64,000 nt of DNA from Terriglobia bacterium (GTDB taxonomy: Bacteria > Acidobacteriota > Terriglobia > Terriglobales > SCQP01), in assembly GCA_021323595.1 (NCBI GenBank), contig JAJPKR010000027.1, positions 62,001 to 126,000 of the forward strand, written 5' to 3'. Shown here in pieces: positions 8,476 to 44,823 of this stretch (positions within the stretch are counted from its first letter, which is position 1; every line of letters starts with the position of its first letter). Both the position numbers and the translations under genes were made by a program. Below the pieces are notes generated by a model. It searched no databases. It saw only the letters and a list, made by a program, of their open reading frames with translations, and was not told where the DNA came from.

Positions 8476-8501
8476 ACGCCACCTTGTGATCGAACACGAT
8501 G

Positions 8502-8936
8502 TCATGAAGAACCGGATTTGTCAACGATCGCGTGGTGTTCCTTGGCGATACAGCGGTCACTCACCACGAAGAGGCCGGCCGCGCGAGCCGCCGCCTCCGC
8601 AGCCCCATGGGTAACGCCCTCCTGGAGCCACAACGCCGCCGCGCCGATGCGGACGGCGGCGGCGGCAATTGCCGGCACGGCGTCGGGGCGCCGGAAGACA
8701 TCCACGATGTCCACGCGCTCGGGAATGTCTTCGAGGCGCGCGTAACAACGCTCGCCCAAGATTTCCGTCTCATTCGGATTGACCGGAATGATCCGGTAGC
8801 CATGCCGCTGAAGGTAGCGGGCGACGCCATGACTGTCGCGATCCGGATTCGCCGACAAGCCCACGACCGCGATGACCCGCGCCGAACGCAGGACTGCGGC
8901 GAAATCGGAAGACTGCGGTGGATCGGCAACGGACAC
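8502..8936 (-). CDS. CoA-binding protein (YccU/COG1832 family)
   Basis: A 144-residue Rossmann-fold protein of the CoA_binding_2 family. The dinucleotide/CoA-binding start VIAVVGLSANPDRDSHGVA is followed by YRIIPVNPNETEILGERCY and the conserved VDIVDVFRR segment; ALWLQEGV near residue 100 is typical. The length matches the family. The start is GTG 8934-8936. It is flanked by two TonB-dependent receptor genes on the same strand and ends 26 bases before the next receptor start, so it may be co-transcribed. The precise physiological role of the family is not established. Confidence 0.9.
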   Translation of the reverse strand: MSVADPPQSSDFAAVLRSARVIAVVGLSANPDRDSHGVARYLQRHGYRIIPVNPNETEILGERCYARLEDIPERVDIVDVFRRPDAVPAIAAAAVRIGAAALWLQEGVTHGAAEAAARAAGLFVVSDRCIAKEHHAIVDKSGSS

Positions 8937-8939
8937 GCG

Positions 8940-8967
8940 TTGGGCGGGGCGCGCCGGCCCCGCCCAA
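8940..8967 (-). terminator. Stem-loop after the second Oar-like receptor
   Basis: Perfect 11-bp stem: arms 8940-8950 and 8957-8967 with the six-base loop 8951-8956, placed eight bases after the receptor stop on the minus strand. No T-tract follows, so it may be an mRNA-stabilising hairpin or a weak terminator. A matching GC-rich stem follows the third receptor. Confidence 0.6.
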
Positions 8968-8974
8968 GTTTAGC

Positions 8975-11900
8975 TTAGAAGGCCCACTTCAACCCGAACT
9001 GGATCACCCGGCCGAGGTGCGAGCCCGTCGGGTGCAAGAAGTTCGACGAGGTCAAGCAACTCGCGCTTCCCGAGGGCGTTCCCCCGGCGGTGTTATCCGT
9101 GCCGAAGCAACTGATGCCGCTGGCAATGCCGGTGAATTGGGTGTGGTTGAAGACGTTGAACCCTTCGGCCCGGAACTCAATGTGCTGCCGTTCATTGATG
9201 CGGAAGGTCTTGAACAGACCCATGTCGAAGTTGAAGCGGCCCGGCTCGCGCAAAAAGTTCCGTCCGGCGTTGCCGAAGGTCAGGCCCGTAGGCGCGGCGA
9301 AGGCGGAGGGGTTGTACATGAGCGGACCGTATTGCGCGCTGGCCAGGCTCAGGTCCGCCGAGCTGACGTTGGCACGCGGGTTGCCGACGACCAGCGGGAA
9401 GCTGCTGCCGGAGCCGACGCCGGCGGCATCCTGGCCGCTGGTGATCGTGAACGGAACTCCGGTCTGGGCGGTCATGATCCCCGACCATTGCCAGCCGCCC
9501 AGCCAGGCGTTGTTGGGCAGCACCGGCAGCCGATAGACCCAGGCGAAGTTCAACATGTGGCGCTGATCGAAGTCCGAACTGGCCCGGTTCAGGGACATGT
9601 TGTAGGAGTCGAGCACGCTGGTTTGACCGTAATCGGAGCTCGAGTCAATGGCGTGGCTGTAGGTATAAGCGAGGTTGAGATCCAAACCGCCAAAATCCCG
9701 GCGCGCGGAAAGCTGAAACGCGTGATAGATGGAGTTAGCGCCTTGGTCCACCAAGTTGATATTCGAATAACCAAGGTACGGCCGCATGGGGTCGGCGCTA
9801 TTCCCGCAGGCAACGCTCAGAAGATTGCCGGCCTGGGTGTTACTGGCGATCGTATTGCCGTTCGGCAGCGTCACGCTGCCGCTGTTGTTGAAGGTGTTGC
9901 AGATGGGATTGCCGTTAATGTCGTTGCTGTTGATCGGCTCGCCCGGCGAGAACGGGTTCTGCGCGGTGGGAATGGGATGGAGCTGATTGATGTTGCGGCC
10001 CGCCGTGAGGTGGGTGCCTTTCGTGCCCACGTAGGAGGCGGTGATGACGGTGTTCCCAAAGAATTGGTGCTGCAAATCCATGTGCCATTGCTGCACGTAC
10101 GGCCACGTCTCTTGCAGCGGCAGCGCGCCGAGGCCGAAGGGCGAAAGGCCGCTGCTGCCAGGGGGCAGGCCGACATTGGCATAGCCTTGGATGTTGTAGA
10201 TGTTGGGCGTGACGGCGAGCGGGGGATTGCGCAATTGGTCAATCGCCTCGTTGCCGCTGGTGTGATCGTAGAAGACGCCGTAGCCGCCGCGAAACGCGGT
10301 CTTGCCGTCGCCGAAGAGGTCATAGGCGAAGCCCAAGCGGGGCGCGAAATTCCACAGGTGGCCCTTGATGCAGCCGGCGGGGGCGCCCTTGGCGTCGCAT
10401 TCCACCAGGCCGTTGTAGAAATTGGCGGTGCCGGCCGCGTTCTGGCCGAGGGTGCCGTCACTCTCGATCACCGGCGCATCGGCGGCCACCCATTGGGAGG
10501 GCTCGAAGTTGTAGGTGAGGCCGGGATATTTATCGCGGTAGGTGCCCAACATGTCGAGCCGCAGGCCCAGGTTGAGCGTCAAGCGGTTGGTGGCGTGCCA
10601 ATCGTCTTGAATGAACGGGGAGAAGACCTTGTAGCGGTCGAAGTATTTCGGCTGGATGTTGCTCTGATACGCCTGCGCGATGCAGCCGGTCAGCATGTCG
10701 GCCAAAGCATTATTCGTCGTGCAGGTCGCCCAGGTACCGAACTCGAGCGTGGGCTGAACCTCCTGGCTTCCCATTTCGTTCTTTTGCGCGGCGGTGAACT
10801 GCGCGCCGTAGTAGAGCGCGTGGTTGCCATGCTGCTGAGTGATCGTGTCGTGATAGTCGTAGGTGGGATTGGAGTTATACCATGGCTCATCGCCGGTGTC
10901 CACGAACCAGCAGCCGCCATCCACCGACGCGCCGCACATCATGTAGGCCGGCATCTTATCGCCGAAGCCGTTCTTGAAAATACCCGGCATGGACCAATTC
11001 GAGGGCAGCGCCACATTGGCGGTGTTGGTCAGCGCGATGTGGTCCACGGTGTAGTCGGCGACGAACTCGTTGAGCAGCGTCGGCGAAATCGTGGTGGCGA
11101 TATGCGCGACCATATCCGCGCCGGGGCCGACGAAATTGGTCGGCGTGGTCGGGTAAGACGACCAGCTCCACAAGGTCTGCGGCACGACCGTACTCCAAGA
11201 GTCGTGGATGAAACGGAAATAGGCCGACCATTTGCTGTTGATCTGGTCATCCACGCGGAAGAGCTCTTCGCGCCAATTCGTATTCGTGGAGACGGAGCCG
11301 TGAAAAAAGCTGCCGGCGCTGGTGACCTGGTTCGGCTGGGGCACAAAGGTCAACAAATCGGCGGCGTTCGGATCCACGGGAACTTGGTTATTCGGAAAGA
11401 GCGTGTAGGTGCCTTGGGTACCGCTGGGGCTGCCCGGCGGCGGGGGGGTGATGGTTTGGATCGGGCAGTTTGGGTAAGCTTTTTCGAAGTCGCCGACGCC
11501 GGCGGGCGGGGTCGATCCGGCGGCCGGGCAGACATCGCTGAAGTTGCCTTGGCGGTGCGACATCGGCGGCACCGGGTCGTTGAAGGTCGCGGGATTCGCC
11601 TCTTTGCGCCACTCTTCCGACCAGAAGACGAAGAGCTTGTCTTTCTTGATGGGCCCGCCGATGGTGAAGCCGTAATCGTTCTTGCGGTAAACCGGCCGCG
11701 TGGTGTCGAAGAAGCTGCGCGCGTTCAGAGCATTGTTACGCAAGAATTCGTAGGCGTCGCCGTGCCATTGATTGGTGCCCGATTTGGTGTCGGCGATCAC
11801 GGTCGCGCCGGCGTCGCGCCCGTAGAGGGCGCTGTAGCTATTGGTGATCACCCGCACGTGACCGATGGCATCGACGCTGGGATAGACATTGATCGTCTGA

Positions 11901-12520
11901 TTGCTGCCATTGTCCATGACGTTGGCGCCATCCACCTCCCAGTCGTTCTCCTCGAGGCGGCCGCCGTTCACGCTGTAGTTGACGTTTCCGTAGACCCCGA
12001 CCGTGCCCTCGTCCTGGCCGGTCTGGTTGCTGACGCCGGGGACCAGGGTGATCAACTGCGTGAAGTTGCGGCCGTTGAGTTCGAGGTTCTGCACCTCGGT
12101 GCCGGTGATGGTGCCCGAAAGCGAGGAGGTCTCGGTTTGCACTTGTCCGATGCCGGTGCCGGTGACTGTCACCTCATTGGTGACTTCGCCGACTTGCAGA
12201 ACGGCGTCGGAGCGAATTTGCTCGCCGACGCGCAGGGCGATGCCGGTGGCCTGGTAGCGATTGAATCCCTTGGCGGTAACGCTGACGCTATACGTCCCCG
12301 GGATCAACCCGCCGACCAAGTAGGCGCCTTGCGCGTTCGTTGACGCTTGGTGGGACACTCCTTGATCCGTGTTGGTCACAATCACCGTGGCTCCGGGGAT
12401 GACCGCTCCTGATTTGTCGGTGACGGTTCCGGTGATGGAACCCGTCGCTTGCGCGAAAAGACCGACCGCGCCGGCCAAAAACACGACGACGAATGCCAGC
12501 CGCATCATCCACACCTTCAT
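8975..12520 (-). CDS. Oar-like TonB-dependent outer-membrane receptor (second copy)
   Basis: A 1,181-residue receptor. The signal peptide ends near GLFAQA, followed by a carboxypeptidase-regulatory domain at about 25-110 (TDKSGAVIPGATVIVTN), a plug region (NVNYSVNGGRLEENDWEVDG) and a barrel ending GRVIQFGLKWAF. The N-terminus is nearly identical to the third copy, including MKVWM and the TGSITGTVTDKSGAVIPG block. The start ATG 12518-12520 has GGAGGAG a few bases upstream. It has its own promoter and a trailing hairpin. It is expected in the outer membrane, energised by TonB; the substrate is unknown. Confidence 0.92.
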   Translation of the reverse strand: MKVWMMRLAFVVVFLAGAVGLFAQATGSITGTVTDKSGAVIPGATVIVTNTDQGVSHQASTNAQGAYLVGGLIPGTYSVSVTAKGFNRYQATGIALRVGEQIRSDAVLQVGEVTNEVTVTGTGIGQVQTETSSLSGTITGTEVQNLELNGRNFTQLITLVPGVSNQTGQDEGTVGVYGNVNYSVNGGRLEENDWEVDGANVMDNGSNQTINVYPSVDAIGHVRVITNSYSALYGRDAGATVIADTKSGTNQWHGDAYEFLRNNALNARSFFDTTRPVYRKNDYGFTIGGPIKKDKLFVFWSEEWRKEANPATFNDPVPPMSHRQGNFSDVCPAAGSTPPAGVGDFEKAYPNCPIQTITPPPPGSPSGTQGTYTLFPNNQVPVDPNAADLLTFVPQPNQVTSAGSFFHGSVSTNTNWREELFRVDDQINSKWSAYFRFIHDSWSTVVPQTLWSWSSYPTTPTNFVGPGADMVAHIATTISPTLLNEFVADYTVDHIALTNTANVALPSNWSMPGIFKNGFGDKMPAYMMCGASVDGGCWFVDTGDEPWYNSNPTYDYHDTITQQHGNHALYYGAQFTAAQKNEMGSQEVQPTLEFGTWATCTTNNALADMLTGCIAQAYQSNIQPKYFDRYKVFSPFIQDDWHATNRLTLNLGLRLDMLGTYRDKYPGLTYNFEPSQWVAADAPVIESDGTLGQNAAGTANFYNGLVECDAKGAPAGCIKGHLWNFAPRLGFAYDLFGDGKTAFRGGYGVFYDHTSGNEAIDQLRNPPLAVTPNIYNIQGYANVGLPPGSSGLSPFGLGALPLQETWPYVQQWHMDLQHQFFGNTVITASYVGTKGTHLTAGRNINQLHPIPTAQNPFSPGEPINSNDINGNPICNTFNNSGSVTLPNGNTIASNTQAGNLLSVACGNSADPMRPYLGYSNINLVDQGANSIYHAFQLSARRDFGGLDLNLAYTYSHAIDSSSDYGQTSVLDSYNMSLNRASSDFDQRHMLNFAWVYRLPVLPNNAWLGGWQWSGIMTAQTGVPFTITSGQDAAGVGSGSSFPLVVGNPRANVSSADLSLASAQYGPLMYNPSAFAAPTGLTFGNAGRNFLREPGRFNFDMGLFKTFRINERQHIEFRAEGFNVFNHTQFTGIASGISCFGTDNTAGGTPSGSASCLTSSNFLHPTGSHLGRVIQFGLKWAF

Positions 12521-12572
12521 GGCGTCTCCTCCCGACCGCTGCGTTTTCGTCCACTTTGACGAAGCTTTCAGG

Positions 12573-12601
12573 TATTTACATCACGAGTTGCGCAATGTCA
12601 A
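12573..12601 (-). promoter_or_regulatory. Sigma-70-type promoter of the second Oar-like gene
   Basis: On the minus strand a perfect -35 TTGACA (12596-12601), a 17-base spacer and -10 TAAATA (12573-12578). This predicts a start near 12566 and a leader of about 45 nt containing GGAGGAG. The same arrangement is found before the third copy. Confidence 0.7.
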
Positions 12602-12759
12602 GGTGAATTTGCGCAACAGCGAAGTTGATTTGCGCACAGATCAGCGGCGGGGCTCGGGCAGAAGGAGTCCGGCTTAGAGGTCGGATCAGCAAAAGCCCAC
12701 GTTAGCCGCGCTGAATGCGGCGTCGCCGGGACGCGGCTTGGCGGAAAGCGGATTACGAT

Positions 12760-12790
12760 TTCGGCGGGGCGGCTGGGCCGCCCCGCCGAA
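12760..12790 (-). terminator. Stem-loop after the third Oar-like gene
   Basis: Perfect 13-bp stem: arms 12760-12772 and 12778-12790 around loop CTGGG, starting seven bases after the stop at 12798. It is GC-rich and has no clear T-tract. It parallels the stem after the second receptor. Confidence 0.65.
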
Positions 12791-12797
12791 GTTCAGT

Positions 12798-15700
12798 CTA
12801 GAAGGCCCACTTCAACCCGAACTGGATCACCCGGCCCAGATGGGCGCCGCCGGGTCGAAACACATTGACTTCGCTGGCGCCGTAGGCGCCGAAATTGCTA
12901 TTGACGCCATTGAATTGGGTGTGGTTGAAGACGTTGAAGGCCTCAGCGCGGAATTGCACCGACTGCCGCTCGGTAACCCGGAATTGCTTGAACACCCCCA
13001 TGTCGAAGTTGGCCCGGCCGGGATTGCGCAGCAGGTTGCGACCGGAATTGCCGAAGGTAAGGCCGGTGGGTTCGGCGAACGCCTGGGGGTTGTACAGCAT
13101 GGGACCGGTAATGGTGCCGACATCGCCAGCGGCGATTTCGGCTGCAGAAACGGCGTTGGGGTTGCCGGAAACCGCGGTGGGATTTCCGACCAGGTCAGCC
13201 CGGGAGCCGGTACCCTGCCCGTTGGCGACGCCGGCGTTATCGCCGAAAACGCCATTGGTAACGGAAAAGGGCGTGCCGGTATCCAGCGTCATGATGCCCG
13301 ACCACTCCCAGCCGCCCAGCCAGCGATTTTGCGCCATCAGCGGCAGATGGTAGACCCAAGCCAGCGAGAGCATTTGGGTTTGGTCGAAATTCGAGCTGGC
13401 GTAGTTGCAGGCCATGCAATAGGAATTGACGAAGCTGCCGTCGTAGCGATCGGAGGCGTTGTCGAGCGAGTGGCTCCAGGTATAGGCCAGGTTCAGATCG
13501 AGCGCGCCGGCGCTGCGCCGAGCCGAAACTTGCAAAGCGTTGTAGTTGGAGTTCGCTCCCTGGTCCACCAGGCTGATCGAGCCAAAGCCGACAAAGGGAC
13601 GGAGAGGCGCCACGGAATTGCCGCAGGCGACGTAAAGGTTCGCCCAGGTGCCGCTACCCAAGGCCGAGCCGGGGGAGATGGTCGCGCCGTTGGCTAAAGT
13701 TACAGGCTGGGCGACACCGCTGGAGTTATACCAGGCGCCCGCGTTATTGAGGCTGTTGCAATCGGCCGCCAAGGTCTGGCCGGCGCTGTGCGCTGTAAGG
13801 GTCTTGGCTCAAGGGCGTGGGATGAAGCTGGTTGAGGTCGCGGTTGTCGGTCAGATGCGTGCCCTTGCTGCCCACATACGCGACCGTCACCGCAGTATTC
13901 ATCACCTGCCGTTGCAGGTCCAAATTCCACTGCTGCACGTAGGGCCACTGTTCCTGCAGCGGAATCGCGCCCACGCCGAGCGGCCCGAACTGCGCCGCCC
14001 CGCCCGAGGGCACATTGGCATAGCCGGTGATATTCGGAATGGTGCTGGTCAGCGCCGCCGGGGGATTGCGGAGTTGATCGATGGCTTCATTGCCGTTGGT
14101 ATGGTCGTAGAAAATGCCATAGCCACCCCGCAGGGCCGTCTTGCCGTCGCCGGTTACATCGTAGGCGAAGCCGAACCGCGGCGCCCAGTTCATCAGATGG
14201 CCCTTGATGCAGCCGCGCGGCGCACCATTGGTATCGCACTGCACCAAGCCGTTGAAGAAATTGGCGACTCCGCCCGATTGGCTGGGCTGGGAGACGTTGC
14301 CAGCGGCGTTGATCGTCGGCGCGTTCGCCGCCACCCACGCTGAAGGCTCGAAATTGTACTCCAGCGTGGGATTGTCGTCGTAATAAGTGCCGAGCAGGTC
14401 GAGCCGCAGCCCCAGATTCAGGGTCAATCGTGGGTTGACATGCCAGTCGTCCTGAATATAGGGCGCGGCCGTCTTGTAGCGATCGAAGTACTTGGGCTGA
14501 AGATTCGACTGGCTGATGCTGGCGATGTTGCCCATCATCAAGTCAGCCAAGGCATTGCCGGTGGAGATGGGGGCGGTATTGCTGAAAGCGAGCGAAGGCT
14601 GCAACTCCTGGCCGCCCATTTCGTTTTTCTGCGCGGCGGTGAACTGGAAACCATAGAACAAATTATGATTGCCGATCACCTGCGTGACTTGGTCGCGGTA
14701 GGAATAGGTCGGGTTAGAGTTGAACCAGGGCTCATCACCGGTGTCGGTGGCGAGGCCGCCGCCGCCGTTATCGGCGGCATTGCAGCAGAGATTGATACTG
14801 GGCATTTTGCCGCCGAAGCCGTTGGCGAAAAGACCGGGCATGGTGAAGCCGGAAGCCAGCGCAATGGGGCCGGAATCGATCAAGCCGATGTGATCCGCCG
14901 TGTAATCGGCGACGAACTCGTTGAGCAGCGTGGGAGAAATGGTGGTGGCGAGATGGGCGACCATGTCCACGCCGGGGCCGGTGAAGGCGGTTTGCACGTT
15001 GGGCAAGTTGCCGCTGCCCCAGAGCGTCGGCACTACGACGGTATTCCAGGAGTCGTGGATGAAGCGGAAGTAGGCCGACCACTTGGAGTTGAAGGTCTGG
15101 TCCACGCGGAACATTTCTTCGCGCCAGTTGGTCGGCTCGGAAATACTGGTTTCCAGCGCATTGGCGCTGCCGGCGACATTCGGCGCCGGGATCAACGCCA
15201 AAAGCGCCTGACCGTTGGGATCGATCGGCACGGTGTTGCCCGGGAACATCGTGTAGGTGGGATCGGTAGAGCCGGCGGGAGGGGGCCCGACGGTGACGGG
15301 GCAGTCGGGATTGGCGGTCCGGAACTCGTTGTAGCCCGTCTGCGTGCCGCCGACCGCCGCGGGACAGACGTCGCTGAAGTTGCCTTGCCGCTCCGCCACC
15401 GAGGGCACGAGCATGTTGAAGGTGCTGGGATTCTTTTCCTTGCGCCACTCCTCCGACCAGAAGAAAAAGGTCTTGTTCTTCACGATCGGACCGCCAACGG
15501 TGTAGCCGTAGTCATTCTTGCGATAGGGCGGCCGAGCGGTGTCGAAAAAGCTGCGCGAGTTCAGCGCTTCATTGCGCAGATATTCGTAGGCGTCGCCGTG
15601 CCACTGATTGGTGCCGCTCTTGGTATCGGCCTCGACGGTGCCGGAGGCGTCACGGCCATATTGGGCGCCATAGTTGGAGGTCAATACGCGGACGTGGCTG

Positions 15701-16356
15701 ATGGCATCGATGCTGGGGTAAACGTTGATGGTGGCGTTGCTGCCGTTATCCATGACATTGGCGCCATCCACTTCCCAGTTGTTGTACTCGGTGCGGCCGC
15801 CATTAACGCTGTACGCAACGTTGCCGTACACGCCGACGGTACCCTCGTCTTGGCCGGTTTGGTTGCTTACGCCGGGAGTCAACGTGATCAATTGGGTAAA
15901 GTTGCGACCGTTCAACTCGAGCTGCTGCACTTCGGTGCCGGTGATGGTGCCGGCCAAAGCGGCCGACTGCAACTGGACCTGGCCGACGCTGGTGCCGGAG
16001 ACGGTGACCTCGTTTTCCACCTGGCCTACTTGCAAGGTCGCGTCCGCGCGCAGGTTCTCGCCAATATGCAGCGGAATGCCCGTAGTTACGCTCTTGTTGA
16101 AGCCCTTGGCGACGACGGTGACGTCATACGTGCCGGCGGAAAGTCCGCCGACCAGGTAAGAGCCTTCGGCGTTGGTGGTCGTTGTGCGTGTCACGCCTTG
16201 CGCGGCATTGGTGACGGTGACGGTGGCGCCCGGAATGACCGCGCCGGATTTATCGGTGACCGTTCCCGTAATGGAACCGGTTGCTTGCGCGAACAGGCCG
16301 ACCGCGCAGGCCAAAGACACGATAACGATTGCCAAACGCGACATCCACACCTTCAT
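12798..16356 (-). pseudogene. Oar-like TonB-dependent receptor (third copy), frameshifted
   Basis: Two overlapping frames make one receptor. From ATG 16354-16356 a signal peptide, a carboxypeptidase-regulatory domain, the plug and about two thirds of the barrel read through ...LNQLHPTPLSQDPYSAQ, then run out of register and stop at 13744. The remaining barrel continues in the next frame (...TLAADCNSLNN onward) to GRVIQFGLKWAF at 12798. Alignment by eye with the second copy, which reads LNQLHPIPTAQNPF then continues, places a single-base shift near 13780-13800. Both parts are otherwise open and conserved, so a recent mutation or a sequencing error are both possible. The start is preceded by GGAGGAGG. 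Confidence 0.85.
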
Positions 16357-16408
16357 GAGGCCTCCTCCCGACCGCTGCACTTGCGACCACACAAACCAAG
16401 CTTTGAGG

Positions 16409-35467: not shown

Positions 35468-37828
35468 GTGTCCGTTTCCCTGGCCGAGGTCGAAACCGGC
35501 GAATCCCTGCTTGCGCGTGGCGAGATCAGCGCGGCGCTTCGGGAATTTCGTGCCGCCCTCGAGCACTATCCGGACGATAGCGCGCTACTGCAACGGCTCA
35601 CGGATACGCTAGCTACCGCCGGCCTTTTGGGCGAGGCCGCCGAGCTGCAAGCCGAACGTTTTGAACAATATCTGAGGTCGGGCCGGCCGCGCGAAGCGTG
35701 CGCGTTATTCAATCGGCTCAACTGGCTGCAGCCGCAGCCGCCGGAGCGCTGGCGGGCCTACGCGCAGGCCCTGGAGGCCACCGGCCAGCCCACGGAGGCC
35801 GAGCGTGCCTATCGGCAAGCTGCGGCCGGCTTCCGCCGGGATGGAGCCGGCGAGCAGGAGGCGGAGGCCTGGCGCGCCGTCTTTCGCCTGAATCCGAAGG
35901 ATTACTCCACTTGCCTGGAGATCGCCGCGCGCGCTGAGTCCACCGGCGACACCCGATTGGCGGGCGAGGCCTGCGGCCAAGCCGCCGCCCTGGCCCACGA
36001 GGATGTCGCGCTGCTGGCGCGCGCGCGGCGCCTCTTGCCCGGCGACCGCGGATTGGCGCTTCGCCATGTGCGCGCATTGCTGGGCGCCGGCAACGGACCC
36101 GACGCGGTAGCGGCGCTGGCCGCGCTCCAGCCCAAAGACGGCTGGGCGAACTGCTCCGATCTGGAGTTGCTCGCCTTGCATACCGAAAGTTTGCTGGCAG
36201 GCGAGCGGGCCGAGGAGGCCGCCGCCCTCATCGAGCCGCACCTGAAGCGCGCCGATTGGTTCGAGCGCGGGCTGCGGTGCCTGCATGTGCTGGCGCGCAT
36301 CGGCAGCCTCAAGGCCGCCGCTTTCGCGGCCGAGATCGAAGACAAATCCGGCCTCGAAAAACGTCACCTGCAATGGGTTCGGGAGCTGCATTTGCTGCGC
36401 GCCGAAGTGAGCGAGCCGGGCATGCTCGACTTTCTCGCCGACGCCTTCAACCGCGCCGGCGAAGAGCCGGCGATGCTCTGGATTCTGCACCAGGCGCTCG
36501 ATGCCGCGCTGAGCTCCGGCGACCTGCCGCGCGCCGCCGATCTGATCGAGCGCATTTTGGCGACGGATCCCAACGACCCGGAGCCGGCGGAGCGGCTGCG
36601 TGAATTCGAGGGACGCCTGCCGCCGGAGCGCTGGCAGCGCCTCAAGGTCGCGGTGGAGCGCTCGACGCCGGCACGGCCGGGTTCGGTCGCCTCTCCGTTC
36701 GCTCCGGCGGCGCGGCGCGTGAGCCGCGCGCGCGCGCCGCGCCCGGCCGCCGCCGCCCCGCGCAAGTCCGACCACGCGCCGGCGAGCAGCGAGACGCTTT
36801 CCATTTCGCAGATCACGCCGGTGATTCGCGCGCTCTCGCGCGAAACCACGCCGCGGCGCATTTTTTTCAGCGCGGTCAATCACTTCGGACGCGTCTGGCA
36901 CGTGGATCGCTGTGTGGCCGCCAACTTTCAATCCGGCCAGGAGCCGGTCAACGTGGTCGAATATTGCGCCCCGGGGGTGCCTTCCAGCTTCGCCGCCGAG
37001 ACCACCCGCCTGCTGAACATGGTCGAGAAGCAATTCCGGCCGCCCGATGCCAAAGCGGTTATCTTGCCGCGCCCCAAGGAGGATCCCGCCACCCTGGCGC
37101 TTTTGGCGGAGCTGGGCATTGCTTCACTGCTGGCGCAACCCCTCAACGAGGCGGGCAGCGTGATCGGCGCGGTGGTTCTGCAAAGTTGCCTGCAGGAGCG
37201 CGCCTGGATGGACCACGACCTGCAGATTCTCGAGGCCCTGGCGGAGCAATTAGTGCTCGTGCTGGGCCATGCGCGGCTGCGCTCGCTGCTGCAGCAGTTC
37301 ACGGCCGTCGATGAGCGAACCGGTTTGCTCAAGGTGTCTTCGATGTTGGAGGTGCTCGTGGCCGAATGCGCGCGGGCGCAGCAGCAGGGCTCGACCGTCG
37401 CGGTCCTGTGCTTGGAAACGATTCAGCCGGCTCGCGACATCGCCCAGACCCCGCAGGCGCAGGACTGGATGCTCACCGTCACCGAGCGCATGGGCGCCTA
37501 TTTGCGGCCCCATGACGTGCTGACCCGAATTTCGGCGACGCAATTCGTGCTCGTGCTGCCGGACACGATCGTCGCCAACTGCCGCGCCGTCTTTCGCAAG
37601 CTGCGCGCAATTCTGCACGATCAAACGTGGCCCAACGGCGAGCAGCTCATCTTGGCCGCCGGCGCGGCGGAAATCGCGGCCGAATTCGGCTTGCAAGCCG
37701 AGGACATCGCCACCGACGTGCTCGATCGCGCGTTGCGCGCGCTGGCCGCGGCGCGCGAGCAGCCGCCCGGTGAAGACCCTTGCATCCTGGCGGCGCAGCC
37801 GCTCGCTGCCGCGGCCGCGGCGGTCTAA
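35468..37828 (+). CDS. TPR-GAF protein with degenerate GGDEF domain
   Basis: A 786-residue protein without signal peptide or membrane segments. Residues about 1-390 are TPR-like helical repeats (ALREFRAALEHYPDDSALLQRL). A Pro/Arg/Ala linker follows at about 395-435, then a GAF-like domain at about 440-610. The last part resembles a diguanylate cyclase: VDERTGLLKVSSMLEVLV near 615 and RISATQFVLVLP near 686, where the GGDEF signature reads SATQF. Catalytic residues are lost, so it should not make c-di-GMP; it may act as a scaffold or sensor. Start GTG 35468 follows AAGGGG. It converges with the repeat protein; the stop codons overlap. Confidence 0.75.
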   Translation: MSVSLAEVETGESLLARGEISAALREFRAALEHYPDDSALLQRLTDTLATAGLLGEAAELQAERFEQYLRSGRPREACALFNRLNWLQPQPPERWRAYAQALEATGQPTEAERAYRQAAAGFRRDGAGEQEAEAWRAVFRLNPKDYSTCLEIAARAESTGDTRLAGEACGQAAALAHEDVALLARARRLLPGDRGLALRHVRALLGAGNGPDAVAALAALQPKDGWANCSDLELLALHTESLLAGERAEEAAALIEPHLKRADWFERGLRCLHVLARIGSLKAAAFAAEIEDKSGLEKRHLQWVRELHLLRAEVSEPGMLDFLADAFNRAGEEPAMLWILHQALDAALSSGDLPRAADLIERILATDPNDPEPAERLREFEGRLPPERWQRLKVAVERSTPARPGSVASPFAPAARRVSRARAPRPAAAAPRKSDHAPASSETLSISQITPVIRALSRETTPRRIFFSAVNHFGRVWHVDRCVAANFQSGQEPVNVVEYCAPGVPSSFAAETTRLLNMVEKQFRPPDAKAVILPRPKEDPATLALLAELGIASLLAQPLNEAGSVIGAVVLQSCLQERAWMDHDLQILEALAEQLVLVLGHARLRSLLQQFTAVDERTGLLKVSSMLEVLVAECARAQQQGSTVAVLCLETIQPARDIAQTPQAQDWMLTVTERMGAYLRPHDVLTRISATQFVLVLPDTIVANCRAVFRKLRAILHDQTWPNGEQLILAAGAAEIAAEFGLQAEDIATDVLDRALRALAAAREQPPGEDPCILAAQPLAAAAAAV

Positions 37829-39828
37829 CCGGCGAGCTTTTCGCCGCCCTCGATCGGTTGTAAGTTGGTGCCCATGGGCGGGAGGCCGCTCATGCCGGGC
37901 GCCTTTTCCTCCGCGATCAAGCCCAGCCAGCCGCGCGTCTCGCCTTGATTGTCGAGAAACGCGATGCCGGGACCGTCACTGCCGAGGCGAATCTGCGCCC
38001 GCGCGCGCCGATTGGCGCCGGCCAGCGTGAGACGCGGCCCGGAGGAATCTACCCGCAATTCGGCGCGGCGCGCGCCGGCCGCGTCCAGCAAGTGCAGGGC
38101 GACCTCGTCGCCCTCGATCGCCCATTGCCCGTTCAGTTGGCCGCCGCCGGCCAGCAAGCCCAAATACGAGCTGCCGTCGGCGGTGATGCCGAACCAAGCG
38201 CGCGATTCGCCCGACGGCGCCAATAACGCCACGCCCGCGCCGTCGTCGCGCAGCCGCAACTGCGCGCCCGGACGTTCCTGCGAATCCGCCAGCGTCACAT
38301 ACGGGCCGTCGTCATCCACCGCCAGCTCGCCGCGCACGCGCCCGGCTGCGTCAAAAAGACTGAGACAGGGAATTTCGCCGACGACGCGCAGCCACGGCCG
38401 CGCCGCGCCCGTGGCCGCGAGCCGCACCACGCCGCCGCTGCCGGCATCGAGACTGGCGAGCCGGACGCCGGGCTGATCCTCCAGCGTGATGGAAGGCCCT
38501 TCGTCCCGGAATTCCAAACGCGCCCGCAAGGGCTGGCCTTCGCCCCAGCCGAACGGCAGATGTTCCGCCGGCGCGGCCAGCCACACCTCCGCTTCGCCGG
38601 CGGGGTTCAGCATCGCCATGCCCGCGCCTTCTGCGCCCTGGCGCAATTCCGCGCGCGCGTGCCCGGCGACGTCGCACAATTCGATGCGGCGCCGCGAGCC
38701 GCCGCCGGTGAACACGATGCGCTGCGCGCCGCGGCTGTCGAACCAGCGCATGCTCGGCCCCTCGGCGCCCAGTCCCAGCAGCACTCGCGTCACGCCGTCC
38801 TCGCCGGCAAAGCTCAATTCCGGCCCGTCGGCGCCCACGCGCACGTCGGCGCGCGCCTGACCGGCGGCACCGCTGAGCCGCAAGCAAGCGCCGGCGCGAT
38901 CGGTGTCGAGCGCGGCGCGCAACACTCCCTGGCCGTCGAAAAACTGCAGGCTCGGCGCGCCTTCGCTGCCCAGCCCGAGATGCCCGCGCAGCGCCCGCCG
39001 ATCATTCCACAACTCCAAGCAGGAAGCGGCAATCTGCGCCCCGAGCGTGCCGTCGGCGCCAATCAAGCTGATGGCCGGACCCTGTTCGCCGTCGCTCACG
39101 CGCGCTTCCGGCCCGCCCGCGCCATAGGAGAGCGATAAAATCGCGCCGCCGGAACCCACCGCCAGCTCCGCTTGCGCCTCGCCGGCGCCGTCGAGCAAGC
39201 GCAGGTAACAGCGATCGCGCCCGACGCCCAACCAGCCGCGCATCGTGCCTTGCGTTCCCAGCAGCGCCAATCCTGGGCCTTCCTCGGCCATGCGAAATTG
39301 CGCGCGCTCCTGCCCAGCTTCGTCGAGCAGACTCAACATCGGCGCCGCCGCCTCCAAGCGCAGCCGCCCCCGTACGTTGCCGCTGGCATCCACGAGACCG
39401 AGATAGCCGGAATCGGCGGCCAAGCCGAGCCAGGCGCGCATCTCGCCGGTTTCATCGAGGAGCGCGATGCCGGCGCCTTCCGCGCCCAGCCGCACCTGCG
39501 CGCGCACGCGCCGCCGCTCGTCGGCCAGCGTAATCCGCGGTCCGTCCGCACTCATCGCGAGCTGGCCGCGCACGACCTGCGCGGCATCTAGGAGGGTCAA
39601 ATAGCTGGCGTTGGCGGCCAAACCCAACCAGGCGCGGGTCTCGCCCTGATCGCCTTGAAACGCGATGCCCGGCTCGTCGGCGCCAAGCTGAATGCGAGCG
39701 CGCGGCACGTTGCCCGCTGAATACGATGCGGGCGCGGGTGCCGCCAGGGAAAGGGCCGGTGCGAGCGTAGCGGAACCGGCAGCCTCGACCTCCGGGCGCA
39801 GCGGAGTCTTGGGCTGGTTAGAATCCAT
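37825..39828 (-). CDS. Protein of ~28 tandem 22-residue beta repeats
   Basis: A 667-residue protein with no recognised domain. After a 42-residue Pro/Ala-rich head it consists of about 28 tandem units of 21-23 residues, consensus RAxLxLGxdGPxLxLLDxxGex. A higher order of three is visible near both ends: an A unit (RAQIRLGSDGPGIAFLDNQ), a B unit (RAWLGLAADSGYLGLVDAS) and a C unit (RGQLAMSADGPRITLADER), repeating every 66 residues; the middle units have drifted. Each unit looks like two short strands with DG and xG turns, so a beta-solenoid or fibre is likely. There is no signal peptide. TACAAT lies 12 bases before the start. Function unknown. Confidence 0.8.
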   Translation of the reverse strand: MDSNQPKTPLRPEVEAAGSATLAPALSLAAPAPASYSAGNVPRARIQLGADEPGIAFQGDQGETRAWLGLAANASYLTLLDAAQVVRGQLAMSADGPRITLADERRRVRAQVRLGAEGAGIALLDETGEMRAWLGLAADSGYLGLVDASGNVRGRLRLEAAAPMLSLLDEAGQERAQFRMAEEGPGLALLGTQGTMRGWLGVGRDRCYLRLLDGAGEAQAELAVGSGGAILSLSYGAGGPEARVSDGEQGPAISLIGADGTLGAQIAASCLELWNDRRALRGHLGLGSEGAPSLQFFDGQGVLRAALDTDRAGACLRLSGAAGQARADVRVGADGPELSFAGEDGVTRVLLGLGAEGPSMRWFDSRGAQRIVFTGGGSRRRIELCDVAGHARAELRQGAEGAGMAMLNPAGEAEVWLAAPAEHLPFGWGEGQPLRARLEFRDEGPSITLEDQPGVRLASLDAGSGGVVRLAATGAARPWLRVVGEIPCLSLFDAAGRVRGELAVDDDGPYVTLADSQERPGAQLRLRDDGAGVALLAPSGESRAWFGITADGSSYLGLLAGGGQLNGQWAIEGDEVALHLLDAAGARRAELRVDSSGPRLTLAGANRRARAQIRLGSDGPGIAFLDNQGETRGWLGLIAEEKAPGMSGLPPMGTNLQPIEGGEKLAG

Positions 39829-40261
39829 GCCGTTACAGCCATTGTAGAGAGGCGGCCCGAACCCGACAATCGTCGCTCCTAGCCGCCGGTAATCAACCGA
39901 ACGCTGTACGAACGCCCGGGTTCATACCGGTTTTGCCGTCAGTCGTGCCACGGCTTTGGTGATCTGACGGGTTTTCAGTCCCTGTGGCGGTCGTAGGATG
40001 AAGGCTTTGGGCCGATTGGCGCCATCGCCGCCACCAGATGGGCGGCGCAAGTATAACCACACGCAAGCTGGCGAGGATCCTGCACGTCAGTTGCAAAGAA
40101 GTGCAGACTCGTTTTGCTCCTCCTTCGGATGCGCCCCAAAACGCCCATCAAATCAGGGACTTGTCACGAGCGGCACGTCGGTTTACGAAGAAGCAGCAAT
40201 CGGCCATGAACGTCCAAGCAAGCATTAAGCCACGAGCAGCGCCCTCGTGCGCCGCCTGCCG
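39829..40261. other. Non-coding region upstream of the repeat protein
   Basis: About 430 bases between divergent genes. A minus-strand TACAAT is at 39841-39846. A short CCGG-GTTCATA-CCGG palindrome at 39916-39930 resembles a T-arm but no acceptor or anticodon stem accompanies it. Small open frames on both strands have no family resemblance. Composition is less GC-rich than the neighbours in parts. Confidence 0.5.
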
Positions 40262-41545
40262 ATGATCGAGACCCGATTCTTAGTCGCCGACCGCTTGGTG
40301 CCTGCCACATCGCTCCATGCCGCCTTAGGGCGCTTAGCCGGGCGGGGGTGGCGGGCCGCCTTGCTGGCAGCCCGGCAAGCGGTACTGGAGTCAGCCAAGG
40401 TGGCGCAGCCGTTCGCCTCCGCCGCACTGCTGGCGGCAGGCGAAACAGAGCCTTTAGGCGACATGCTGTTCCGCGGCGACGAGCTGTTCTACGTCATCAC
40501 CAAGCCCAAGGGCCGGACGGCTTGGCGGCCCGCCACTGCGCCTCCCGCCGCCGGCAGCGAAAAGCCGGAGCTGGAAATCGGCTTGATTTCGCCGGCGCGG
40601 GTCAGCACCAGCACGCGCTTAGCCGAGTTCGGCGCCAATTTAGCCGAGGCCCTGCGGGCCAGCGGGCTCGAAGAGGAACTGACCTGGCGCCGGCCGGCGG
40701 CAGCGCGCATGGAAAGTCTGCGCCAGGCGGCCGAATGGGAGCCGGCACGCGCCACCTTGCAGGAGTTTGAGCGCGCCGAAGCCGCCATGGAACCGGTCGC
40801 ACGGCAACTGCTCGAGCGCTTGGAACGCGAAGGATTTGCGCGCGTCGCGGCCTTATGCGCCGGCGCCGAGGCCGAAAGCGCATCCGCTGCGCTCGCCAAC
40901 TTGGCGCGCGCGGGCTTGGTGCGCCGCGATCTGCTGATTTCGTGTCATCTCAGCGGCCGCCCTCTCTTGCTGCTCACATCGCCTGAACAAAAGAGCAACG
41001 CCGCCGTGCAGCAGCGGCAGTGCCCCGATTGCGGGCTGGGACTCGGGGACGAAACGATCGAGGAAGTCGCGCAGCCGCTGATCACGACCGCCCAACAACA
41101 CTCCTGGCCGCTGGTGTGGCTAACGGAACGCTTGAATCGGCTGGGCATGCTCTCGCTCTTGTGGTGGCGCGCGCCCGACGAGTGGTTCCCGCTCGGGGTC
41201 GTGGGCGGCGAGTTCGCGGGCCAGACTTGGCTATTAGCCATCAGTTTGCAGCGCGTGGATGAAGACGAGGTTCGCGCGCTGGACCGGCTGCGCCGCCGTT
41301 TCAACTTCGACCGCCTGGGCGTGATCGCTCTCGGCGGCTTCGCACCGGCGGCGCGCCGCTCGCTGGAAATCGCACGGCCGCCGGCGCTGCTCGCCGGGAG
41401 TTGGAAAGACGCCGACGAGGTGCTCGAAACGAGCCTGCGCGAGGCAGCGCTGCGCTATGCCGCCCTGCGCCTCTCCCCGCTCGAGAGCGCCGCCGGTTTT
41501 CCGATCTTGGCCACGCTCCGCGTGCTCTATTCCCATCCCGGCTAG
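40262..41545 (+). CDS. Unrecognised 427-residue protein
   Basis: No family recognised. The N-terminal ~100 residues contain LVPATSLHAALGRLAGRGWRAALLA; residues about 160-240 are helical with a possible winged-helix (LLERLEREGFARVAALCAG, then AALANLARAGLVRRDLL). A single CPDCG lies near 260. The C-terminal third has alternating strands and helices (PLGVVGGEFAGQTWLLAIS, RRFNFDRLGVIALGGFAP) that could be an alpha/beta domain. ATG 40262 is preceded by an in-frame GTG at 40247. It is cytoplasmic by appearance. The codon pattern matches the neighbours, so it is a real gene. Function unknown. Confidence 0.7.
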   Translation: MIETRFLVADRLVPATSLHAALGRLAGRGWRAALLAARQAVLESAKVAQPFASAALLAAGETEPLGDMLFRGDELFYVITKPKGRTAWRPATAPPAAGSEKPELEIGLISPARVSTSTRLAEFGANLAEALRASGLEEELTWRRPAAARMESLRQAAEWEPARATLQEFERAEAAMEPVARQLLERLEREGFARVAALCAGAEAESASAALANLARAGLVRRDLLISCHLSGRPLLLLTSPEQKSNAAVQQRQCPDCGLGLGDETIEEVAQPLITTAQQHSWPLVWLTERLNRLGMLSLLWWRAPDEWFPLGVVGGEFAGQTWLLAISLQRVDEDEVRALDRLRRRFNFDRLGVIALGGFAPAARRSLEIARPPALLAGSWKDADEVLETSLREAALRYAALRLSPLESAAGFPILATLRVLYSHPG

Positions 41546-43077: not shown

Positions 43078-44823
43078 ATGAGCACGCAGACGTTCTCCCC
43101 GATGAAGCGCGCCGATTTTCAGGTCATGCAGCCGGAAACGACTCACTCCGGTTCGCGAATCGATGCCATCCATAAGGGCTTGCCTAAGATCACGCAGTCA
43201 CTTTGCCCGGAGTGCACGCGCGTGATCGAGGCGCGCGAGTTCGAAGAAAACGGCGCCGTCTATATGGAAAAGACTTGCCCGACGCACGGCTATTTCCGCG
43301 ACAAGATCTACGGCGACGTCAAGCTCTATTTGAAGATGGAGCAGTGGTACTTCGGCGACAATCGCGGCCTTTCGAATCCGGCCATTCCCTCGGCCACGCG
43401 CTGCCCCGACCAATGCGGCCTGTGCTCGATGCACACCAGCCACACCGGGCTGGCCAACGTGGATCTGACCAACCGCTGCAACCTGACCTGTCCGGTCTGC
43501 TTCGCCAACGCCAACGCCGCGGGTTATCTCTACGAGCCGAGTTTCGATCAGGTGCGCAAGATGCTCCAGGCGCTGCGCAACGAGCGCCCGGTTTCCGGCC
43601 GGGTCGTGCAGTTTTCAGGCGGCGAGCCGACGATCTATCCGCGCTTCCACGATGCCGTGCGGCTGGCCAAGGAGATGGGCTTCAGCCACATCCAAGTCGC
43701 CACGAACGGGGTGATGTGGAACGACTTGGAGTTTTGCGAGAAGGCCCGCGACGCCGGCCTGCACACGCTGTATTTGCAGTTCGACGGCGTCTGCGACGAC
43801 ATCTACAAACGCACCCGCGGCGAGTCGCTCTTCGAGAAGAAGCTCAAGACGATCGAAAACATCCGCAAGGCCGGCATCATGAAGATCGTCTTCGTGCCGA
43901 CGATCGTGAAAGGGCTGAACGATCACCAGATCGGCGACATCATCAAGCTGGCGCTCGACAACATCGACGTGGTTAGCGGCATCAGCTTCCAGCCGGTCAC
44001 CTTCACCGGCCGCATTTCGCGCAAGGAGCTCGAAGCCAAGCGCTTCACCCTGGCCGACCTGGCGCACGCCGTAAACGAGCAAACCGGCCTGGCCGATGCC
44101 TATAACGACTGGTTCCCGCTGGCCTGCGTGACGCCGTTCTCGAAGCTGATCAGCGCGCTGCGGGGCGAAGAGACGACCTCGCTGAGCTGCCATCCGCACT
44201 GCTCGATGGGCACCTACATGTTCGTGGAGCAGGGCACGCGCAAAGCGGTGCCGGTAACGCGCTTCGTGGACGTGGGTGCGATGCTCCAAGACATCGACAT
44301 GCTGGCGCGCAGCGCCGAAAAGGCGCGCTTCAAGTTCTTCAGCAAGGTCAAGACCTGGAACTCGCTGCAAAAGCACTTCCATGCCGAGCGGGCGCCCGAA
44401 GGCCTGACCTTCACCAAGTTCCTGCAAACGCTGCAGGGCATGACCGACAAGAGCTATGGCCGCGGCGACGATGCCGAGAAGGGCTTCGTGTACAAGACGC
44501 TGATGGTCGCGGGCATGCATTTCATGGATAGCTACAACTACGACGTGGAGCGCGTGAAGCGCTGCATCATTCACTACGCCGCGCCAAACGGCCTGATCTA
44601 TCCCTTCTGCACCTACAACTCCGGACCGGTCTATCGCGAGAAGATCGAAAAGAAATACTCGATGCCCTTCGAGAAGCAACTCTCGATGATGCAGATCCCA
44701 GCCAACGGGCAGACGACGCAAGTCGCCGGCGACGCCGCCAAGGCGGCGCTGGCCGCTGGCTCCGGCTGCTGTTCGACTGCGCCGGCGGAGAAGCCCGAGC
44801 TGGTGCAGATCGGTCAAGCTTAG
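43078..44823 (+). CDS. Radical SAM protein resembling tetraether lipid synthase (Tes/COG1964)
   Basis: A 581-residue radical SAM protein. The SAM cluster motif is CNLTCPVC (Cys134, Cys138, Cys141), followed by VVQFSGGEPTIYP. Upstream lie a probable metal site (Cys43-x2-Cys46 and Cys67-x2-His70) and a further Cys set Cys109, Cys113, Cys116 (CPDQCGLC); downstream is CHPHCSMG and a C-terminal GCC. This multi-cluster layout resembles the Tes/MJ0619 family, which couples two lipid tails in archaea, and acidobacterial homologues are proposed in iso-diabolic acid or brGDGT synthesis. The function here is inferred. ATG 43078 follows GCGAGGAA; TATTAT lies at 43049-43054. A clear terminator follows. 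Confidence 0.8.
   Translation: MSTQTFSPMKRADFQVMQPETTHSGSRIDAIHKGLPKITQSLCPECTRVIEAREFEENGAVYMEKTCPTHGYFRDKIYGDVKLYLKMEQWYFGDNRGLSNPAIPSATRCPDQCGLCSMHTSHTGLANVDLTNRCNLTCPVCFANANAAGYLYEPSFDQVRKMLQALRNERPVSGRVVQFSGGEPTIYPRFHDAVRLAKEMGFSHIQVATNGVMWNDLEFCEKARDAGLHTLYLQFDGVCDDIYKRTRGESLFEKKLKTIENIRKAGIMKIVFVPTIVKGLNDHQIGDIIKLALDNIDVVSGISFQPVTFTGRISRKELEAKRFTLADLAHAVNEQTGLADAYNDWFPLACVTPFSKLISALRGEETTSLSCHPHCSMGTYMFVEQGTRKAVPVTRFVDVGAMLQDIDMLARSAEKARFKFFSKVKTWNSLQKHFHAERAPEGLTFTKFLQTLQGMTDKSYGRGDDAEKGFVYKTLMVAGMHFMDSYNYDVERVKRCIIHYAAPNGLIYPFCTYNSGPVYREKIEKKYSMPFEKQLSMMQIPANGQTTQVAGDAAKAALAAGSGCCSTAPAEKPELVQIGQA

What the first reader, a model, noticed from the sequence alone, without database searches (positions are those of the whole stretch)
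37825..39828. A 667-residue protein built from ~28 tandem repeats with a three-repeat superperiod
After a short head the protein is almost wholly 22-residue units (RAxLxLGxdGPxLxLLDxxGex). Units A, B and C recur in order every 66 residues near both ends (RAQIRLG, RAWLGL, RGxLA types), with drift in the middle. The three-unit order is seen directly. That it forms a three-sided beta-solenoid or fibre with one face per unit type is inference. No signal peptide, membrane segment or known domain is visible, so the role is open.
Basis: partly seen in the sequence, partly recalled or inferred. Interest (0 to 1): 0.75.

Follow-up and report, generated by a model that had tools for sequence, protein, structure and literature searches.

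The report
Giant soluble beta-hairpin repeat protein
This acidobacterium encodes a soluble protein made of about 27 copies of a 22-residue beta-hairpin, predicted to form one long beta-sheet, with one uniformly greasy face and one face whose residues repeat every three hairpins; it is a rare, oversized offshoot of an unnamed family of short membrane-anchored repeat proteins, and its function is unknown.

Summary
In detail: the minus-strand ORF 39828..37825 (667 aa) carries 27 full 22-residue units plus a half unit (residues 43-641). The three-unit A-B-C order runs through the whole array, with two single-unit interruptions, not only near the ends.

The three-sided solenoid is not supported. 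AlphaFold on a 9-unit piece (pLDDT 85) gives exactly two antiparallel strands per unit. The best structural matches are natural or engineered single-layer beta-meanders (OspA, MORN1, CPAP G-box).

The superperiod sits almost entirely on one face of that sheet (positions 3, 5, 12, 14, 16). The other face is uniformly aliphatic.

The same repeat occurs widely in Acidobacteriota as short coiled-coil + membrane-anchor proteins with roughly 2-13 units, without a superperiod in the three tested and with no Pfam or NCBIfam model. The long soluble form was found only here and in two genomes of a sister genus. There it is again next to a relative of the 432-aa gene at 40247-41545, in otherwise unshared surroundings.

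Most likely it is a cytosolic scaffold whose patterned face binds a partner, plausibly the neighbour's product. The fold class is well supported; the function is inference. New variant of a known kind of architecture.

The parts
37825..39828 (-). 667-aa repeat protein gene (ATG at 39828, stop at 37825-37827)
   Evidence: orthologues in G002 and G010 at 46/45%; GC3 0.82, dN/dS 0.018/0.099 between the two orthologues
39703..39828 (-). Pro/Ala-rich head, residues 1-42; predicted disordered, no signal peptide or TM pattern
   Evidence: pLDDT <50 for 1-42; maximum 17-residue hydropathy in the first 45 residues 1.2
37906..39702 (-). repeat array, residues 43-641: 27 full 22-residue hairpin units (numbered 2-28 in the calls) plus half unit 29
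39307..39702 (-). conserved N-terminal block, units 2-7 (A B C A B C), residues 43-174; 50-82% identical per unit to the G002 orthologue
39109..39702 (-). nine-unit piece (residues 43-240) folded with confidence: 18 strands, two per unit
   Evidence: mean pLDDT 85.4, pTM 0.66
38989..39042 (-). unit 12 (residues 263-280), short atypical unit interrupting the A-B-C order
38068..38133 (-). unit 26 (residues 566-587), second unit interrupting the A-B-C order
37936..38067 (-). conserved C-terminal units 27 (C) and 28 (A), residues 588-631; unit 28 most resembles units 2 and 5
   Evidence: 73% and 55% identity to the orthologue
37825..37905 (-). C-terminal tail, residues 642-667, plus stop; low confidence in the model
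39841..39869 (-). sigma-70-like promoter match just upstream (9 of 12), weak evidence
   Evidence: 1 found, 0.2 expected
40247..41545 (+). divergent neighbour, 432 aa, no database family; a homologue is linked to the repeat gene in all three genomes that have it
35468..37828 (+). convergent TPR-GAF-GGDEF gene whose stop overlaps the repeat gene by 4 bases; linkage not conserved

Best explanation
It is a soluble, probably cytosolic scaffold built as one long antiparallel beta-meander of about 54 strands, in which each 22-residue unit is a beta-hairpin (RAxLxL - DG turn - PxLxLLD - xxGex loop). Strand positions 2, 4, 6, 13 and 15 form a uniformly aliphatic face that must be buried, by self-packing, dimerisation or a partner. 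Positions 3, 5, 12, 14 and 16 form the opposite face. That face repeats every three hairpins (about 3 nm by standard sheet geometry): a Trp/Tyr row in B units, an Arg/Gln-Gly-Ala row in A units, and a mixed Arg/Thr row in C units. The patterned face is proposed to be the binding surface, and the product of the linked 432-aa gene is the most likely partner. Shown or well supported: the repeat, the superperiod, its restriction to one face, the hairpin fold by prediction, and the conserved linkage. Inferred: burial of the aliphatic face, binding by the patterned face, and the partner.
For: Repeat and superperiod statistics. AF2 of residues 43-240, using other segments of the array and the orthologues as alignment rows: pLDDT 85.4, 18 strands, two per unit. 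The full-length model shows the same strand pattern at low confidence, pLDDT 53.5. VIA-align of the fragment: engineered OspA Z 11.5 over 195 residues (rmsd 7.2), T. brucei MORN1 Z 10.5 over 181 (rmsd 8.1), CPAP G-box Z 10.2 over 144 (rmsd 5.1), TarM meander domain Z 9.9 over 97 (rmsd 3.6); Foldseek OspA E 4.9e-7. Face test: within-minus-between type similarity 1.69 for positions 1, 3, 5, 12, 14, 16 against 0.21 for 2, 4, 6, 13, 15. No TM or signal pattern, unlike nearly all relatives. Linkage with a homologue of the 432-aa gene in three genomes, and absence of both from the other relatives searched; nothing else strong shared between the 64-kb window and 19 kb around the G002 locus. Known analogues of this architecture bind partners: MORN4 through its groove (PMC7725318) and CPAP TCP a STIL peptide at a sheet edge (PMC3776556).
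Against: Only three sequences of the long form are known, two of them 96% identical. The confident model covers 9 of 27 units and relies on a self-alignment. Z values of 10-11.5 at rmsd 5-8 show a shared arrangement, not a superposable fold. The superperiod is weaker in the orthologues, which argues against a strict requirement for it. The neighbour belongs to an older family that also exists without the repeat gene, and its orientation relative to the repeat gene differs between genera. No binding, localisation or expression data exist.
Confidence: 0.5

Rival explanations
1. The three-unit order is only a relic: the array grew by duplicating 66-residue blocks, and face residues keep the memory without any role for the superperiod. 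The protein may still be a scaffold.
For: Turns and loops also show some type memory (within-between 0.31 and 0.50). The order weakens in the orthologues and in the middle. Tested short relatives have no superperiod.
Against: The signal is concentrated in alternating strand positions of one face (1.69 against 0.2-0.5 elsewhere). Trp at position 3 is kept in B-phase units 3, 6, 22, 25 and 29 in both window and G002, although most middle units have diverged to 14-50% identity.
Confidence: 0.35
2. The long sheet curls into a closed shell or superhelix with the aliphatic face inside, in the manner of RHS/YD cocoons, and encloses a partner.
For: Foldseek of the full-length model ranks RHS, teneurin and TcC shells first (E 5e-13). 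The 'LLDxxG' strand-turn resembles the YDxxG of YD repeats by eye. A uniformly aliphatic face needs cover.
Against: TM-scores to RHS are about 0.1 and 0.19-0.25 for the confident fragment, where OspA outranks RHS. No RHS/YD Pfam hit at E<=1. No toxin or self-cleavage domain.
Confidence: 0.15
3. The first reader's three-sided beta-solenoid or fibre with one side per unit type.
For: A 66-residue superperiod exists; the units are all beta.
Against: Two-residue DG turns and the AF2 strand pattern give antiparallel hairpins; the top solved matches are open meanders. The type differences lie on one face.
Confidence: 0.07
4. It is an exported surface protein, like its membrane-anchored relatives, leaving by a route not visible in the sequence.
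For: Nearly all relatives carry a coiled coil and one hydrophobic anchor ahead of the repeats.
Against: The anchor is missing in all three long proteins, with no signal peptide, lipobox or sorting domain.
Confidence: 0.1

Closest known systems
Unnamed Acidobacteriota family: N-terminal coiled coil (LEKxNRRLK) + one membrane anchor + 22-24-residue repeats
   Same: The same repeat consensus RAxLxxxxDGPxLxLxDxxG; profile matches down to E 2e-9 and 7e-23
   Different: Roughly 2-13 units, membrane anchored, no superperiod in the three tested; no long soluble member found in the samples searched
OspA single-layer beta-sheet and its engineered extensions (Borrelia)
   Same: Tandem beta-hairpins forming an open antiparallel sheet; best matches Z 11.5, Foldseek E 4.9e-7
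   Different: OspA is an outer surface lipoprotein whose sheet joins two globular ends (PMC12183334); no significant sequence match; here one face is uniformly aliphatic and there are about 54 strands
MORN repeat proteins (TbMORN1)
   Same: One hairpin per 23-residue repeat, elongated twisted sheet (PMC7725318); Z 10.5 over 181 residues
   Different: No GxG, YEGEW or LxY motif and no MORN Pfam hit; connectors of 2 and 5 residues here against 5 and 6; aliphatic rather than aromatic lining; three-unit superperiod
CPAP/SAS-4 TCP (G-box) domain
   Same: Free-standing open beta-meander; Z 10.2 over 144 residues
   Different: About 20 strands and both faces hydrated (PMC3776556); here about 54 strands and one aliphatic face
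RHS/YD-repeat shells
   Same: Hairpin meanders with a D-x-x-G turn; top local Foldseek matches of the full-length model
   Different: No YD motif, no Pfam RHS hit, TM-scores 0.1-0.25, no toxin or autoprotease domain

Membership tests
Coiled-coil/membrane-anchored repeat family of Acidobacteriota | 22-24-residue repeat RAxLxxxxDGPxLxLxDxxG | tested here: met
   unit and array profiles reach E 2e-9 to 7e-23 in other families of the phylum
Coiled-coil/membrane-anchored repeat family of Acidobacteriota | N-terminal coiled coil and single membrane anchor | tested here: not met
   no hydrophobic anchor and no LEKxNRRLK segment in the three long proteins; so a relative of the repeat, not a standard member
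MORN repeats | GxG / YEGEW / LxY motifs or a Pfam MORN match | tested here: not met
   no MORN family at E<=1; unit consensus lacks the motifs
MORN repeats | one beta-hairpin per ~23 residues in an elongated single sheet | tested here: met
   (prediction only)
OspA-type single-layer beta-sheet | open antiparallel sheet of tandem hairpins | tested here: met
   (prediction; rmsd 7.2 over 195 residues)
OspA-type single-layer beta-sheet | sequence relationship and lipoprotein with globular end domains | tested here: not met
   no match; no lipobox in the head; array runs nearly end to end
RHS/YD repeats | YD motif repeats, Pfam RHS match | tested here: not met
RHS/YD repeats | closed cocoon enclosing a cargo | tested here: inconclusive
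   local matches with TM 0.1-0.25; full-length model has low confidence
Parallel three-sided beta-solenoid | one coil per 66 residues, parallel strands stacked between coils | tested here: inconclusive
   one search gives antiparallel hairpins; solenoids absent from the top rows, which does not by itself exclude them

The most novel reading that the evidence does not exclude
One of the largest natural open beta-meanders outside RHS shells, in which a three-hairpin code on one face acts as a molecular ruler or lattice that binds copies of the linked 432-aa protein at about 3-nm spacing.
Probability: 0.12. Interest if true: 0.7.

Novelty: new variant of a known kind. Interest (0 to 1): 0.45.

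Why it matters
It points to an uncatalogued beta-hairpin repeat family spread through Acidobacteriota and shows one lineage turning it into a very long soluble protein. The separation of a constant aliphatic face from a face patterned every three hairpins gives a direct, testable design rule for how a free-standing beta-sheet stays folded and carries periodic binding sites. The conserved pairing with an unknown neighbour gives a concrete partner to test.

Tried and rejected
Known-family searches of the protein: Pfam, NCBIfam and PADLOC gave nothing above cut-off; PHROGs only a weak hit (phrog_32816, E 0.0094, unknown function); PDB sequences none. Viral, phage and plasmid origin: no relatives. 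A genome-contig scan found only the two known orthologues. A sequence link of the repeat to OspA was seen only at E 0.084 (short relative) and 0.93 (unit profile), not significant. Profile search of the neighbour family against PDB: only E 1.7 hits. I read its paralogues by eye as possibly PD-(D/E)XK-like, but no tool confirmed this and I do not claim it. The convergent TPR-GAF-GGDEF gene was rejected as a partner because its orthologues in G002 and G007 lie elsewhere. Literature searches found no description of the repeat.

Full report
What is there. The ORF lies on the minus strand, 39828 to 37825, 667 codons. It is the only such gene in its 3.55-Mb genome. Residues 1-42 are a Pro/Ala-rich head, residues 43-641 are repeats, and 642-667 a tail. 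A circular 22-column profile gives 27 complete units and one half unit, score 491 against 9.4 +/- 1.7 for shuffles. The consensus is R-A-x-L-x-L-G-x-D/E-G-P-x-L-x-L-L-D-x-x-G-x-x.

The superperiod. Raw autocorrelation puts lag 22 (0.305) just above lag 66 (0.231) and far above lag 44 (-0.021). Compared unit by unit, lag 3 is the only strong order: 28.8, against 19.7 for shuffled order (p = 0.0002), with lags 1 and 2 below average. Profiles of types A, B and C made only from units 2-7 assign 17 of 20 later units as predicted if units 12 and 26 are read as single-unit insertions (p = 0.001). The positions of those two insertions were chosen by looking at best matches; the permutation test allowed the same freedom to shuffled strings. 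The G002 orthologue shows the order more weakly (lag 3 p = 0.028; 12/20 calls, p = 0.19).

Which residues carry it. Splitting the unit into alternating strand positions, one face (positions 1, 3, 5, 12, 14, 16) carries a within-minus-between-type similarity of 1.69 BLOSUM units. The opposite face (2, 4, 6, 13, 15) carries 0.21, the DG turn 0.31 and the loop 0.50; in the orthologue 0.59 against 0.11 for the two faces. The strongest columns are 3 (Trp in B), 12 (Tyr in B, Gly in A) and 5. The other face is nearly constant: Ala2, Leu4, Leu6, Leu13, Leu15. So the three unit types are three versions of one face, not three sides of a tube. Unit types here follow from the order, so this test is independent of residues except for the placing of the two insertions.

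Structure. The full-length AlphaFold model from three sequences has pLDDT 53.5 and 51 listed strands. Because the array is repetitive, I folded units 2-10 with units 15-23 and the matching parts of the orthologues as alignment rows (alignment A7). This gave pLDDT 85.4, pTM 0.66, with 18 strands in strict pairs, typically 8-residue strand, 2-residue turn, 7-residue strand, 5-residue loop. The best solved matches are engineered OspA (Z 11.5, 195 residues, rmsd 7.2), MORN1 (Z 10.5, 181 residues, rmsd 8.1), the CPAP G-box/TCP domain (Z 10.2, 144 residues, rmsd 5.1) and the meander domain of TarM (Z 9.9, 97 residues, rmsd 3.6) (Foldseek). All are open antiparallel meanders. The tool's own note warns that Z below about 13 for repeats may reflect only a common arrangement; I claim the arrangement, not homology. 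Named viral matches are mostly MORN proteins of giant viruses.

Relatives. The full-length protein is found only in G002 and G010, two species of one sister genus, at 46 and 45% identity; a scan of the 84,980-species genome collection found the same two. The first six units and the last two are the most conserved (50-82% per unit), the middle mostly 14-50%. A three-unit profile finds the same repeat in 14 further genomes of 297 across the phylum, and the full profile in 12 further genomes of 399 in the class besides G000 and G002. In almost all of those read, these are 130-400-residue proteins with a coiled coil of the type LEKQNRRLK, one hydrophobic anchor, then roughly 2-13 units; L014 has a coiled-coil-like start but no clear anchor, and a few weak hits (such as L015, L016, L021) match only over one or two units. 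The three relatives tested have no superperiod. Relatives also occur on plasmids of Candidatus Manganitrophus. Those tested have no Pfam or NCBIfam model above cut-off. The 667-residue protein is thus a long soluble offshoot without the anchor.

Neighbour. The gene at 40247-41545 encodes 432 residues with no known family; its homologues have none either. Among 60 relatives searched, homologues occur only in the same two other genomes. In each a copy is the direct neighbour of the repeat gene, although the two genes are divergent in the window and co-directional in G002 and G010. Apart from these two genes and one weak 31% match, nothing is shared between the 64-kb window and 19 kb around the G002 locus. 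Each of the three genomes has a second, longer paralogue elsewhere without a repeat gene nearby, and a distant homologue in G138 also stands alone. So the neighbour family is older, and one copy became tied to the repeat gene. Three genomes in two genera is a small sample, and one further member of the sister genus (G007, 88% complete) lacks both.

How it may work. The shown facts are a long hairpin sheet by prediction, an aliphatic face, a patterned face, and a linked gene. The inference is that the aliphatic face is buried by self-packing or dimerisation, and that the patterned face, with Trp/Tyr rows about every 3 nm by standard sheet geometry, binds a partner, most likely the neighbour's product. 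Comparable open sheets bind partners: MORN4 binds myosin 3a through its groove (PMC7725318), and CPAP TCP binds a STIL peptide along one edge (PMC3776556). Against this, the pattern is weaker in the orthologues and could be a relic of 66-residue block duplication. The absence of a signal or anchor suggests the cytosol, but this was not tested experimentally.

Verdict. The three-sided solenoid is replaced by a single-layer beta-meander with one patterned face. The architecture is of a known kind; the length, the superperiod and the uncatalogued repeat family make it a new variant.

Noticed in passing
L009-L022, L027, L066-L074, L077: An uncatalogued, widespread Acidobacteriota family: coiled coil, single membrane anchor, then roughly 2-13 units of the same 22-24-residue hairpin repeat. 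No Pfam or NCBIfam model in those tested.
   Followed up: partly
window 40247-41545 (+); L054:1685-3310, L055:6839-8365, L063:7282-8649: Unnamed protein family with a CPxC-type cysteine segment in most copies and a conserved C-terminal region; by eye possibly a degenerate nuclease-like fold, unconfirmed.
   Followed up: partly
window 43078-44823 (+): Radical SAM protein with an HMPTM N-terminal zinc ribbon, the group that from memory includes membrane-spanning lipid synthases; relevant to acidobacterial lipids.
   Followed up: no
window 4465-16392 (-): Three large outer-membrane beta-barrel receptors (OMP_b-brl_4 with CarboxypepD_reg, two with a TonB plug match) in a row, in a stretch of slightly lower GC.
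   Followed up: no
window 35468-37828 (+): TPR-GAF-GGDEF protein whose stop codon overlaps the repeat gene's end by 4 bases; it has a 51%-identical paralogue region elsewhere in the genome (C30).
   Followed up: partly
window 37825-39828 (-): The protein holds 61 Arg but only 3 Lys, and the G002 orthologue 50 Arg to 3 Lys.
   Followed up: no
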